Source: Cytidiella melzeri (Eukaryota > Basidiomycota > Agaricomycetes > Polyporales > Irpicaceae). From it: a DNA stretch of 64,000 nt. Within the stretch, counting starts at the first letter, position 1. Each line of letters begins with the position of its first letter. The DNA lies in contig JABYQR010000201.1 of NCBI GenBank assembly GCA_022592445.1, positions 1-64,000 on the forward strand. The letters are read 5' to 3'. Positions 19,888-27,437 of the stretch are shown piece after piece. Both the position numbers and the translations under genes were made by a program. Below the pieces are notes generated by a model that saw only the letters and a program-made list of their open reading frames with translations, searched no databases and was not told the DNA's origin.

Positions 19888-22389
19888 ATGTTCGCGCGTG
19901 CCGTCAGGAATGCGCTTACATCGTTCTCTCGACCTCTCTTTCGATTCCGAGGGTGTCTCAACGCGAAGAAGGACGTACTCAGGGCACTCTCGAGACATGC
20001 AGCCACCGTCAGCGCACCAGCACCAGCGTCTTCTGACGACGCAGACATCATAGCCGATTTTGACTTGCCACAGGCTGCGCAGCGATACACAGGGCTCAAG
20101 CCAACTGGACTGTTTGGGCACGCGTTCCTCACAACGCCGTCGGCGTTTGTAGAACTTGCGGACTCTACGTTACACCGAGCAAGCCTGCTGACTCAGAGGA
20201 TTGTGCGGGCGAGGGAATCCCGAGACGAGCTGTTCAAGGTGGTGAAGCACCTTGACAGACTCAGCGACCTGCTGTGCGGAGTTATAGACCTTGCGGAGCT
20301 CATCAGGAATGCGCATCCCGATCCTGTTTGGATACAGAGCGCGGAGCATGTGTACGAGAAGATGTGCGAGTTTATGAATGTCCTGAACACCCATGTTGAC
20401 CTCTACTTCGTGCGTACCACCCACGTTCATGTACCGTACTGCGTTCATTTAATCTAATTACGTAGGTCCTCCGAGAGGTCTTGTCGGACCCCGAGATCTC
20501 GCAGTCTCTTGGTCCAGAGGCACGAGAGACTGCGATGATATTCTGGCGAGACTTTGAAAAGTCAGGAATCAACTTACCACCGGCACAGCGCTCCAAGTTC
20601 GTGTCCCTTTCTTCTGAGATCATACATCTCGGTCGACAGTTCCTCAATGAAACCTCGAGTGCACGACCGCCGGCTGTTATCAAGCCTTCAGAGCTCAAGG
20701 GCTTGAAGGACAAGACTATGGGCGCGCGATTACGCCTCCAGGCGCGGTTTCGGGATTTGGTGGTGTACCCTGGATCCCTCCAGGCCCAGATGATCATGCA
20801 TTCTGCACCTGAGGAAGAGCCGAGACGAAAAGTATACATTGCTGCTAATTCGAGTACGCCAGAGCAGATAGAGACGTTGGAGAAGATGTTGCGTGCTAGA
20901 GGAGAGCTGGCAAGCTTGGTGGGGAAGGAAAGTTACGCACATATGACGCTTACGGACAAGATGGCTGGGTCTCCTGGTACGTTGAGAAGCATACTTGCCG
21001 TCGCATCTTGCGTTGCTGACGCCATGTAGAGAATGTGGTACGCTTCCTTGAAGCTCTTCTGGAGCACACCCGCCCTTATGCCCGTAACGCGCTTCGAACG
21101 CTTAGTATGCGTAAACAAGAACACCTTCACACACCTCCCTTCCCGACGATACAGGCGTGGGATAGAGACTACTACTGTCCACCAGAGCCTCCCGCACCAC
21201 CGGTGTCATTACCTCCATTGACCCTCGGTACGGTTTTCATGGGCCTGTCGCGGCTTTTCCGAAACTTGTATGGCATTACACTACGGCTGACGGACGTTGC
21301 ACCGGGCGAGGTGTGGCATTCGGACGTCCGAAAGCTCGAAGTTGTCGATGAGCAGTCGGGCGTGATCGGTTGGATCTACGCTGACCTTTTCTCGAGGCAT
21401 GGGAAACCGAGTGGGGCAGCCCACTATACCGTCCGTTGTTCGAGAAGGACCGATAATGACGACGAGCATCGGGATCTGTTGGGTGTGCAGGACGAGGAAG
21501 TTTTGAAAGCGCTGCCTTTGTCCAACGAGTTCGAATCTGCGCACCGGGCACGCATACGAGGCGTGGAGGGTGTGTTTCAGTTGCCTGTGGTTGTGCTGCT
21601 GTGCGAGTTCACTCGACCAACGATCAGCCGAGGACCTACCATTCTCGCTTGGCACGAGGTGTTGACTTTGTTCCACGAAATGGGGCACGCGATGCATTGT
21701 GAGTCTACACCGCTTTTGTATCTACGGAAACACCCTGGACTGATGACATACCCAAAAAAGCGATGATCGGTCGCACAGAGTACCAGAACGTTTCTGGCAC
21801 GCGCTGTGCCACGGACTTTGTGGAACTGCCCTCGATACTCATGGAACACTTCCTCAACTCACCTAACGTCCTTTCTCTCTTTGACATAACCGGTGACCTC
21901 TCCGTCCGCCAATCGGGAAACCACCACGACGACCCTTGCAAGTCGATCGACACGCACACACAGATCCTCCTAGCTGCTCTAGACCAGATATACCACTCCC
22001 CCGTAGCCCTCTCGGACCAATTTGACTCTACAGGCGCGTTGGCACAGCTGTACGAAACTCGCGGGCTTATTCCGTACGTACCAGGAACGTCTTGGCAGAC
22101 CCAGTTCGGTCATCTCTTTGGTTACGGCGCCACATACTATTCTTACTTATTTGACCGCGCCATCGCCTCGAGGGTGTGGCGCAAGCAGTTCGTACATGAT
22201 CCGCTGAACCGGGAGACAGGCGAAAAGTACAAGAACGAGATATTGCGATACGGTGGGGGAAGGGATCCTTGGAAGATGGTTAGTGCGTTTTTGGACGCGC
22301 CTGAGATGGAAGGGGGAGATGCGGAGGCTATGGCTGAGGTGGGCCGATGGAGAATTGAGGACGAGGTGTCGATGCCTGGGAGACATTAA
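19888..22389 (+). CDS. MIP: Mitochondrial intermediate peptidase (MIP/Oct1), M3 metalloprotease
   Basis: Four exons (19888-20409, 20466-20976, 21030-21698, 21761-22389) give 776 aa. Introns are 53-62 nt with GT-AG ends and consistent phases. The protein begins with an Arg-rich, acid-poor presequence (MFARAVRNALTSFSRPLFRF) fitting mitochondrial import. The catalytic zinc site is HEMGH (His560-Glu561, His564), and the third ligand is probably Glu589 in DFVELPS. The intron between exons 3 and 4 falls just after FHEMGHAMH. Family role: removes an octapeptide from partly processed matrix precursors. In agaricomycetes MIP is the classical neighbour of the A mating-type homeodomain genes, as here: HD2 ends 780 bp away. 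No defect is seen. Very secure call. Confidence 0.97.
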
Positions 22390-23169
22390 TGAACAGTGAC
22401 TTGCATGTACTTACATGAGTAATTGTTCATTCATTCGGAGGTGTATGATGGTCATTGTTCGAATCCACTGTGCTTTACCATGGTTTCCGTTGTATACGTA
22501 CGCACTGTTGTTACGACAATACACAGGGATCCGGGTCTACTTACCCATTGTTGCTGTTCCATCAGTAACATCAGTGACGTATCAGATGTCCGATAGGACC
22601 GATACTCCCGCGCGGTGCTGTTGCGACCCTTCATTCATCAACCGTGGGAAACTTGCTTTGACCTCATTGTCCATTGTCCATTGTCCTTTTGAATGGTGTG
22701 TGTCAGTGGGTTCCTGAGTCCCTAGGATGCACGGACCAAGGGGGCCATATACGTCTGATAGATGGTTGCAAAAGCGTGGTTGAAACGTTGAAGTTGTGGC
22801 GTGTCTTGGTAATAAGATTTTGTTTGTGGCTAGTTGTTTTGCCAGGCGTTCTGTCAGGGAATCAGGATGCGCGAATGGGATGTGCGGTGGTGCTACAAAT
22901 GAGGTACAAACACTGCTACGGTGTATGCTATGCGGATAAATAGTATGATAATGATACACAACGAAGAGAAAAGAAAATGCAGAAGCAATGCGAATATGAA
23001 GAAGGAGAAATTCTGGCACAGAAGAAAAACGAATTAGATGTAGAGCTGAGAGCGACGGAGCAGAACATTTCTAAACGGTAAAAAGGAAAAAGGGAAAAGT
23101 CAGCTAAACATAATGAGAAAGCAAGGCGTACCAAAAAAGCGAATACGAAGAGGGAAATAGCAGGATTTT
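22390..23169. other. Intergenic region between MIP and HD2 (tail to tail)
   Basis: 780 bp holding the 3' ends of two convergent genes. No supported frame, no repeat with other parts of the window. Confidence 0.6.
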
Positions 23170-25242: not shown

Positions 25243-27437
25243 ATGACGTTCAAAGAACGGGTTTTCCTCGCTGAAGCCAATTTCCTCGCTGCATTGACCT
25301 CGGGTACCTCTGCCCTTGCACAATTCGACGCTGAGTGGGAGATCCTTGGAGGGGAGTTTGAACGCGCTCTAGACCAGTCGACGATAGACCCCAGTGAGGT
25401 CGAACTTGCCTACGCTGTATCGTCGAAGATCGCCATTCTCAGCGAGAATTTGCTTAAGATGGAGGAAGTGTCGACAAGCATAACCGCCACCTTACTCAAC
25501 GAGATTGACGTTGCTCTATCGGACCTCAGCCTTCAGGACTTAAGCCTGCAGGACGTCCAAGAAACTCCGACGGGTCGTGTTCAACCATCCCCTACAGCAG
25601 CCCCACATCGCCATACTGGCCCATACATATCGGAAGCAATTTCTTGGCTCTTGGAGCATCCCCACGATCCCTATCCGCCGAGCTCACTGAAACGAACCTG
25701 GGCCCGTCAGGCTCAAATCACTCCACGGGTCATGGATGACTGGTTCAAGTCCATACGGAAGGAGATAGGATGGGTCGCACTCACCAAGACGCACTTCAAG
25801 GGCTCACGCAGTATGGCTGTCGCCGCGGCAGGCGCCGTCTTGCTCGACAATGACAGTGGCGCGGAGGCTACAGTGCCTTTCGAAGTGCAGGCGGAGCTGC
25901 TCGCAGTCAAAGCAAAGCTGCAGAACTTGTATCTGGAGGAGCGAGGCTTGCCGTCAGTGCCCCCAACGCACGAATCGAGCCATACGGGTTCACGCTCCGT
26001 GTCTGTCGAGTCCTCGGCTTCAGCCTCCAGCGACCTCACTCCCTCGCCATCCTCTTCGTCAGACCGTTCGCTGTACTCGTCGGATAGTCTCACCACTGCC
26101 CCAAGTACTCCTTCGTCGCAGTCTTCCTCTCATCTGCCATCCCTTGTCTTCGACGCCTCATCAGACAACGAGGACGACGAACAACTGTTGGACCCCTTCC
26201 AAGATTTGCAGGACAACGCCACAGCGCTCGTTGCAGGTCTCGCAAAAGACAACAACGATTCGCAACGACGACTTCAGCCTGACTGGTACGTAGTTGTCAT
26301 TGTCGTCTTGCATTGTTCTTTATCTTGACGATTCTTCGCAGCCATTCGTACTTCGACCTTTCGTTCGAAGACTCACCCGAATCTCGGCTTCAAGATCCAT
26401 TGGCGCAGTTTATAGACACACAATTGTTTCCACCGTTCGACTCTCTGTCGCAGTCCGACTTCTGGACCACTGCGACAGAAGATGTGGTCGAAGTCACGAC
26501 AGACGCGTTAGCCCCGAGTCCGCTGGAAACCGTTCCCACGGTTGAAGCTGTTCCCACGGTTCAATCGGCGTCTGTGCCATCCCGGAAGCGCCGTCTCTCG
26601 GATGCAGATGTTCCAGCCACCGCGAAAAAGTCGAGGACGATCCGCAACTTACCAAAGCCGGGTGCAAGGAGACCGCAGGCGGTCTCTGCTCCGGTCCCTG
26701 TCGCACACCTTCCGATTGACTCTGTGAACGCCCTCGACTTCGACCAATTCTTCAAGGAGCTCGAGAAGGGGACAATCTCGTTGCCGCCGTTTGTCGGAGA
26801 TGCCAGTTCCGTTGGTCCTTCAGGTCCGGTCGACTTCAACGTGTTCGACTTCGCTGCTCTTGAGCCTCCCGCATCTGCCAGCATAGCGCCTGGTAAGTCC
26901 TCATACACCTTGAGATCACTTGGTACTTAACTGATATTGTTGTAGTCTGCACCGTCGACGCACCCTTGCCTACTGCTGGCGAGTGGTCATGGGATACCAT
27001 TATTGCTGCTGCATCATCTCAGGTCAGCCATGTCATGTGTACATACGGGGAAGTTTGCTCACATCGTGTGCTTGTTTTGCATGCAGGCCTCCACAGACGC
27101 CGTGCAATTTGTTGATAAGGAACTTGAGACGCTACTCGCTTCATTCACCGACTCCGCCGCCTCTGCAGGCTCAGAGGACAGCGCGGAGGGATCCACGGCT
27201 ACTTCTGACTCCACTTCTGACTCAGCCGCTGGGACATCTGAGCCTTCAACTTCAGCTACTCAGAATGAGGCGCAGACCGTCTCGCCCGAAATGCTCTCTA
27301 TGCCCAACGACTTGCTGTTCCCTATGCCTTCCACTTCCTTTCCCACTTCGCCTTCTTTTCAGGACCTTCTGAGTGATTTCACTAACATCGGTGGCGTCGA
27401 CGATCTTGGCTGCATCCCTTCTATTGTCGTCTCGTGA
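25243..27437 (+). CDS. HD1: HD1-class homeodomain mating-type transcription factor
   Basis: Four exons (25243-26285, 26342-26892, 26946-27022, 27087-27437) give 673 aa. ATG 25243 (MTFKERVFLAEANF) is preferred over the in-frame ATG at 25207. The atypical homeodomain lies near residues 127-178: ISWLLEHPHDPYPP, then VMDDWFKSIRKEIGW. The WF...R..IGW ending is the HD1 signature, but Ser replaces the usual Asn (position 51) of the recognition helix. Residues 429-446 hold a bipartite basic signal (RKRR ... KKSR), consistent with HD1 supplying nuclear import to the heterodimer. The C-terminus is Ser/Thr/acidic, as in activation regions. A further intron (27433-27485) could replace the stop, giving VVSSS instead of VVS as the end. 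Confidence 0.93.

What the first reader, a model, noticed from the sequence alone, without database searches (positions are those of the whole stretch)
19888..27437. Complete MAT-A (homeodomain) mating-type core: MIP, HD2, HD1
MIP is followed by a convergent HD2 and a divergent HD1 gene sharing a 312-bp promoter. Both homeodomains, and all splice phases, can be read. This is the classical agaricomycete arrangement and gives the allele of one haplotype.
Basis: partly seen in the sequence, partly recalled or inferred. Interest (0 to 1): 0.75.

Follow-up and report, generated by a model that had tools for sequence, protein, structure and literature searches.

The report
Ordinary mushroom mating-type gene pair (MAT-A)
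This stretch of a wood-decay fungus holds the expected pair of mating-type regulator genes beside their usual neighbour; it is an ordinary locus, though its gene order and one weakened DNA-reading domain follow the polypore pattern rather than the classical mushroom one.

Summary
Confirmed to the base. MIP (19888-22389, +), HD2 (24930-23170, -) and HD1 (25243-27437, +) are intact, four exons each; the HD gap is 312 bp. The HD models equal deposited "hypothetical proteins" of Cytidiella melzeri, Polyporales. HD2's relatives include named mating-type proteins; HD1 has Mating_N and homeodomain signals just under Pfam's cut-offs. No second copy was found in the assembly: one haplotype. Two corrections. 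HD1 lies away from MIP and points its way: the inverted polypore order, not the classical one (PMC4101180). HD1's homeodomain lacks the DNA-contacting Asn51 (WFKSIR); HD2 keeps it. That HD1 state is in print for other polypores. Yet the homeodomain segment is HD1's best-conserved part against Irpex (70-73%) and folds confidently. Likely mechanism: a non-self HD1/HD2 heterodimer in which HD2 reads DNA and HD1 supplies partner surface, nuclear signal and activation. Allelic polymorphism, the defining test, could not be examined. New member of a known kind; low interest.

The parts
19888..22389 (+). MIP, mitochondrial intermediate peptidase, 776 aa; exons 19888-20409, 20466-20976, 21030-21698, 21761-22389
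   Evidence: spliced model; Pfam Peptidase_M3 PF01432 E 8e-118; its second exon has one match in the assembly, itself
23170..24930 (-). HD2 homeodomain gene, 534 aa; exons 24930-24451, 24395-24282, 24232-24080, 24027-23170
   Evidence: identical to deposited BC835DRAFT_1419572 of Cytidiella melzeri; Pfam Homeodomain E 7.5e-16
24203..24471 (-). HD2 homeodomain, residues 154-208, helix III WFQNRRNRMKR with Asn at position 51; interrupted by two introns
   Evidence: domain range; exons; alignment; window coordinates worked out by hand from these
24931..25242 (.). 312-bp shared upstream region between the HD2 and HD1 start codons
25243..27437 (+). HD1 homeodomain gene, 673 aa; exons 25243-26285, 26342-26892, 26946-27022, 27087-27437
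   Evidence: identical to deposited BC835DRAFT_1419573 of Cytidiella melzeri; Pfam Mating_N E 5.9e-4 and Homeobox_KN E 1.1e-4, both just below curated cut-offs
25243..25521 (+). HD1 N-terminal helical region, residues 1-93 (expected dimerisation and self/non-self region)
   Evidence: three helices, pLDDT 82-92 per block of ten up to residue 90; Mating_N match residues 10-81; role inferred from other species (passages)
25621..25770 (+). HD1 TALE-type homeodomain, about residues 127-176, helix III WFKSIRKEIGW
   Evidence: profile match to MEIS, PKNOX, PBX and other homeodomains, best E 1.5e-10; three helices, pLDDT 88-92 per block of ten from residue 131
25750..25752 (+). TCC, Ser170 of HD1, at the place of the homeodomain's Asn51
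   Evidence: sequence; aligned with the Asn of MEIS WFINAR
26583..26636 (+). HD1 candidate bipartite nuclear localisation signal, residues 429-446 (RKRRLSDADVPATAKKSR)
   Evidence: pattern scan; the same pattern found none in HD2, but it would miss other kinds of signal

Best explanation
This is the homeodomain mating-type locus (MAT-A / HD) of one haplotype of the polypore Cytidiella melzeri: one HD2/HD1 pair transcribed apart from a 312-bp shared promoter, next to MIP, in the inverted polypore order. After fusion with a partner carrying another allele, HD1 of one nucleus binds HD2 of the other through their N-terminal helical regions, and the pair acts as the transcription factor that starts dikaryon development. 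HD2, whose recognition helix is intact, most likely does the specific DNA reading; HD1, whose homeodomain keeps its fold but has lost Asn51, most likely supplies the partner surface, the nuclear localisation signal and the activating tail. Shown here: genes, open frames, order, relatives, domain state, predicted fold. Inferred from work on Coprinopsis cinerea reported in papers whose passages I read: dimerisation, division of labour, role in mating.
For: Spliced models with open frames; HD1 and HD2 equal to deposited proteins. HD2 hits include the Phanerodontia chrysosporium A2 mating-type protein, HD MAT HD2 of Rhizopogon and HD2 of Pyrrhoderma. HD1 has Mating_N and Homeobox_KN signals and its family profile matches MEIS-type homeodomains. 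MIP adjacent. Position 51 is Asn in 35 of 35 fungal HD2 proteins examined and Ser in this HD1. NLS pattern in HD1 only. PMC4915694 passage: in C. cinerea the HD1 homeodomain is dispensable, HD2's is required. PMC4101180 and PMC9503964 passages: HD1 motif degenerate or missing in other polypores while HD2 keeps it.
Against: Both HD1 Pfam matches are just under the curated cut-offs. No strain comparison, expression or cross was available. The beta-flanking gene was not identified. STE3 matches lie on contigs C312 and C215, none on C115; their linkage to this locus is unknown, so polarity is open. The HD1 homeodomain segment is more conserved against Irpex than HD2's (70-73% against 58-61%), which sits uneasily with a merely tolerated domain. 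The same passage of PMC4915694 says that in Heterobasidion the roles are reversed, HD2 lacking a bona fide homeodomain, so the division of labour is not universal.
Confidence: 0.88

Rival explanations
1. The HD1 homeodomain still reads DNA, with changed specificity or affinity: Ser51 and a conserved WFKS-[IL]-RKEIGW helix contact the site differently, so both subunits contribute to target choice.
For: The HD1 segment 127-200 is the most conserved of the four parts compared with two Irpex species (52 of 74 and 54 of 74 identical) and helix III is predicted at high confidence. Arg53 is kept and the last 19 residues of the segment keep a net positive charge, 1 to 3 in the four Ser proteins.
Against: Asn51 contacts adenine in nearly all DNA-binding homeodomains (general knowledge, recalled). 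Loss of the HD1 motif recurs in other polypores, and in 108 HD1 proteins, six with a species name and all six Russula, the place is Glu with net charge averaging -1.7 (range -2 to 1), which looks like release from DNA contact. The conservation could equally come from a structural or partner-contact role.
Confidence: 0.25
2. HD1 is decaying and this haplotype's HD1 is a non-functional or redundant gene; mating depends on HD2 with another partner.
For: HD1 domain scores fall just below curated cut-offs; Asn51 is missing. PMC8686365 (passage) reports that 37.8% of the examined species outside Agaricales and Boletales had only one HD class.
Against: 673 codons open over four exons with GT..AG introns; relatives over 98-99% of its length in two Irpex species with nearly the same helix III; homeodomain segment is the best conserved part.
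Confidence: 0.06
3. The HD pair is intact but no longer sets mating type: the species is homothallic, or the pair has other tasks.
For: No allele comparison or cross data; the assembly holds this one haplotype. No paper naming the species was found in the library searched.
Against: HD1 and HD2 have only 42-45% identity to their Irpex counterparts, in line with fast-diverging mating genes, though no other gene was compared as a yardstick; other polypores are reported to use the HD locus in mating (passages).
Confidence: 0.07

Closest known systems
A (HD) mating-type locus of Phanerochaete (Phanerodontia) chrysosporium
   Same: single HD1 gene, away from mip and transcribed in mip's direction (passage in PMC4101180); its A2 protein is 33% identical over 62% of this HD2
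   Different: the beta-flanking gene beside HD1, reported there, was not identified here; reported as bipolar there, unknown here
MAT-A of Pycnoporus cinnabarinus and Wolfiporia hoelen
   Same: inverted polypore order (Pycnoporus); HD1 with a degenerate motif or without WFxNxR while HD2 keeps it (passages)
   Different: Pycnoporus HD1 also has a deletion in helix II, and in Wolfiporia the three-helix motif was not detected; here three helices are predicted
Coprinopsis cinerea A locus HD1/HD2
   Same: HD1 and HD2 classes, N-terminal heterodimerisation, HD2 homeodomain required (passages)
   Different: at least three gene pairs there (passage) and one here; its order is the non-inverted one (recalled, and by contrast)
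HD1/HD2 of Irpex rosettiformis and Irpex lacteus
   Same: closest relatives found, 42-45% identity over 90-99% of the query; WFKS[IL]RKEIGW in their HD1s as here
   Different: their gene order was not examined

Membership tests
MAT-A (HD) locus of Agaricomycetes | divergently transcribed HD1 and HD2 genes with a short shared promoter | tested here: met
   312 bp between start codons, opposite strands
MAT-A (HD) locus of Agaricomycetes | HD2 with a typical homeodomain and WFxNxR | tested here: met
   Pfam Homeodomain 58.1 bits against cut-off 22.9; WFQNRR
MAT-A (HD) locus of Agaricomycetes | HD1 with a TALE homeodomain and the Mating_N region | tested here: inconclusive
   Homeobox_KN 22.4 against 24 bits and Mating_N 20.3 against 21.4, both just below cut-off; family profile matches TALE homeodomains, E 1.5e-10; 3 of the 6 other proteins (P0002, P0004, P0007) carry both domains
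MAT-A (HD) locus of Agaricomycetes | HD1 helix III WFxNxR | tested here: not met
   WFKSIR; exchanges in this HD1 motif are reported as tolerated (passage), so it does not exclude membership
MAT-A (HD) locus of Agaricomycetes | MIP flanking one side | tested here: met
   one match of its second exon in the assembly
MAT-A (HD) locus of Agaricomycetes | beta-flanking gene on the other side | not tested
   no beta-fg sequence was at hand; three ORFs between 30.5 and 37.4 kb gave no Pfam match
MAT-A (HD) locus of Agaricomycetes | high allelic divergence confined to HD1 and HD2 | not testable with these tools
   no other strain held; one HD1 and one HD2 found in the assembly
Inverted Polyporales MAT-A order | HD1 away from MIP and transcribed in MIP's direction | tested here: met
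   against the description in PMC4101180
Inverted Polyporales MAT-A order | HD1 beside the beta-flanking gene | not tested
   beta-fg not identified
Classical agaricomycete MAT-A order | HD1 beside MIP | tested here: not met
   HD2 lies between MIP and HD1

The most novel reading that the evidence does not exclude
HD1 has kept a conserved homeodomain fold while giving up Asn51 in Irpicaceae (Ser; also Ser and Ala in two unnamed relatives) and, apparently separately, in Russula (Glu, with a net negative recognition segment). The HD1 homeodomain has there been turned from a DNA reader into a partner or cofactor surface, with HD2 as the only reader.
Probability: 0.3. Interest if true: 0.4.

Novelty: new member of a known kind. 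Interest (0 to 1): 0.18.

Why it matters
It gives the mating-type locus of one haplotype of a species that no paper in the library searched names, useful for crosses and strain typing. More broadly it adds a case where the HD1 homeodomain is conserved yet lacks its key DNA contact, which makes the question of what the HD1 homeodomain still does testable by mutation.

Tried and rejected
Second allele or second HD pair: the Homeodomain family gave 11 places in the assembly, one of them on C115. The C235 hit, of similar exon size, continues as FQNKRQAMRQ and is not a mating HD2. The other 9 were only read by eye in raw translation: none shows the HD2 motif WFQNRRNR where helix III could be read (for example WFQNRRAKEK, WFQNKRRSMKK, WFQNRRQLAKK); in some the helix is cut by an intron. 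One search had read the minus-strand loci on the wrong strand; one search replaces that. HD1 exon 1, an Irpex HD1 and an Irpex HD2 found this locus and otherwise only weak scraps (E 1.43 on C130, E 0.017 on C15). So a dikaryotic assembly is not supported.

Pheromone receptor linkage: 14 STE3 matches group by position into four receptor genes on C312 (115.8-134.7 kb) and one on C215; none on C115. Contig breaks leave linkage open. I fetched that stretch but did not analyse it.

Glycogenin as a marker for the bfg side: 4 Glyco_transf_8 matches, best on C190, none on C115; uninformative.

First tally of HD1 position 51 used a faulty pattern that caught the wrong Trp in some rows and left one protein out; one search replaces it. 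The tally is biased: 116 of its 123 proteins come from a composite query, of whose 192 hits only the best 120 were listed, and most carry no species name. Clustered at 70% identity they reduce to 7 groups: Ser 3, Glu 2, Ala 1, Asn 1. One non-fungal HD2 hit (P0043, a fish protein) was dropped from the HD2 count.
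Full report
Observation. The stretch 19888-27437 holds three genes with open frames. 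MIP runs on the plus strand with four exons and 776 aa and is a Peptidase_M3 protein at E 8e-118. HD2 runs on the minus strand from 24930 to 23170 with four exons and 534 aa; HD1 runs on the plus strand from 25243 to 27437 with four exons and 673 aa. The nine predicted introns are GT..AG and keep the frame. The start codons of HD2 and HD1 are separated by 312 bp. Chance is not a serious option: the HD1 and HD2 models are letter for letter the deposited proteins BC835DRAFT_1419573 and BC835DRAFT_1419572 of Cytidiella melzeri, both named only as hypothetical proteins. The species is in Polyporales, Irpicaceae. The window is part of an 83,101-bp contig.

Identity. HD2 carries a Homeodomain match of 58.1 bits against a cut-off of 22.9, and its relatives include proteins named as mating-type or homeodomain 2 proteins: A2 of Phanerodontia chrysosporium, HD2 of many Suillus species, of Rhizopogon and of Pyrrhoderma. 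HD1 matches Homeobox_KN and Mating_N, each just under the curated cut-off; its six other hits include two Irpex proteins over 98-99% of its length and, weakly (E 1.3e-5), a Desarmillaria protein named for its HD1 C-terminal domain. A profile of the HD1 set matches MEIS, PKNOX, PBX and TGIF homeodomains in solved structures, best E 1.5e-10, and aligns its WFKSIR with the MEIS WFINAR. The predicted structure gives three N-terminal helices (residues 3-93) and a three-helix homeodomain (130-138, 147-156, 161-174), pLDDT mostly 82-92, with the tail at low confidence; mean pLDDT of the whole is 52 and the model rests on only seven aligned sequences. Comparison of that model with solved structures was weak.

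One haplotype. The second MIP exon, HD1 exon 1, an Irpex HD1 and an Irpex HD2 find only this locus in the 49.7 Mb assembly apart from weak scraps. Of 11 homeodomain places in the assembly no other looked like a mating HD2 where it could be read. STE3 matches form four receptor genes on contig C312 and one on C215. Whether either lies on the same chromosome as this locus is unknown.

Correction 1, gene order. [quoted passage not shown] Here HD2 lies between MIP and HD1, and HD1 and MIP share a strand, so this is the inverted order as far as it was tested; the beta-flanking gene was not identified. In Taiwanofungus camphoratus, another polypore, the orientation of the pair differs between haplotypes (PMC8865532, passage), so the order here may not hold for all alleles.

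Correction 2, the HD1 homeodomain. Homeodomain position 51, Asn in the general WFxNxR motif, is Ser170 in this HD1 (codon 25750-25752). Both Irpex HD1s also have Ser. In 123 HD1 proteins that I examined (7 of 7, and 116 further ones among the 120 listed of 192) the residue is Glu in 108, Asn in 10, Ser in 4 and Ala in 1. Six of the Glu proteins bear a species name and all six are Russula; eight of the Asn proteins do and are Armillaria, Desarmillaria or Guyanagaster (names, residues rechecked). The sample is biased by its query and by unnamed environmental sequences and falls to 7 clusters at 70% identity. In HD2 the residue is Asn in 35 of 35 fungal proteins, this one included (36 hits, one fish protein dropped). 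The HD1 state is not new: PMC4101180 describes a degenerate HD1 recognition helix in Pycnoporus and a failure to find the HD1 motif in Postia, and PMC9503964 finds WFXNXR in HD2 but not HD1 of Wolfiporia. Pleurotus HD1 keeps it (PMC10739230). For all papers I read only the passages returned.

Mechanism. PMC4915694 (passage) reports that in Coprinopsis cinerea the HD1 protein has the activation domain and the nuclear localisation signal while its homeodomain is dispensable, and that the HD2 homeodomain is absolutely required; it also says that in Heterobasidion it is HD2 that lacks a bona fide homeodomain. The anatomy here fits the Coprinopsis case: HD2 intact; HD1 with a candidate bipartite signal at residues 429-446 and none found in HD2 by the same pattern. 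One result pulls the other way. Against the two Irpex species, the HD1 segment 127-200 is 70% and 73% identical, residues 200-240 are 63% and 61%, the N-terminal 120 residues 54% and 47%, the tail 41% and 40%; the HD2 homeodomain is 58% and 61%. A domain that is merely tolerated should not be the best-kept part of the protein. It may serve as a partner or cofactor surface, or still touch DNA in another way.

Verdict. A genuine, intact, ordinary MAT-A core of one haplotype, in the polypore order, with the HD1 state known from other polypores. The defining test, allelic divergence among strains that follows compatibility, could not be run.

Noticed in passing
HD1 relatives P0006 and most of P0045-P0159 (six named, all Russula): In 108 of 123 HD1 proteins position 51 is Glu (commonest WFQEVRDSIGW), with a net charge averaging -1.7 over the last 19 residues of the segment, against +3 in the ten Asn proteins. 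An acidic HD1 recognition helix, apparently of Russula; the two paper searches aimed at it were seen as listings, and of those papers only passages of four (PMC8686365, PMC8970355, PMC4101180, PMC3140503 or others cited here) were read, so whether it is in print is open.
   Followed up: partly
window 8733-9350, 10272-11522, 16811-18010, 39775-40371, 42433-44472: Retroelement ORFs on both sides of the locus: RVT_1 at 8733-9350, RVT_2 at 10272-11522 and 42433-44472, gag-like matches, partly under cut-off, at 16811-18010 and 39775-40371. Long ORFs at 2141-3913 and 45252-46508 read like gag proteins with a zinc knuckle but had no Pfam match. The mating core sits in a retroelement-rich stretch, as reported for Wolfiporia and Taiwanofungus (passages).
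   Followed up: partly
window 30571-31083, 32147-32728, 36877-37431: Three ORFs of 171-194 codons on the HD1 side without any Pfam match; the beta-flanking gene, if on this contig, could be among such unnamed genes.
   Followed up: no
window 51445-52749, 56445-57953, 61821-62690: F-box-like ORF, AMP-binding enzyme and DHHC palmitoyltransferase further along the contig.
   Followed up: no
L031:3599-4426 (C115:67599-68426): A velvet-factor ORF (Pfam Velvet, E 1.7e-22) beyond the window on the same contig, about 40 kb from HD1.
   Followed up: partly
C312:115790-134651 and C215:31845-32821: Four STE3 receptor genes clustered within 19 kb and a fifth elsewhere; Phanerochaete chrysosporium is reported with five receptors, three of them clustered (passage).
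   Followed up: no
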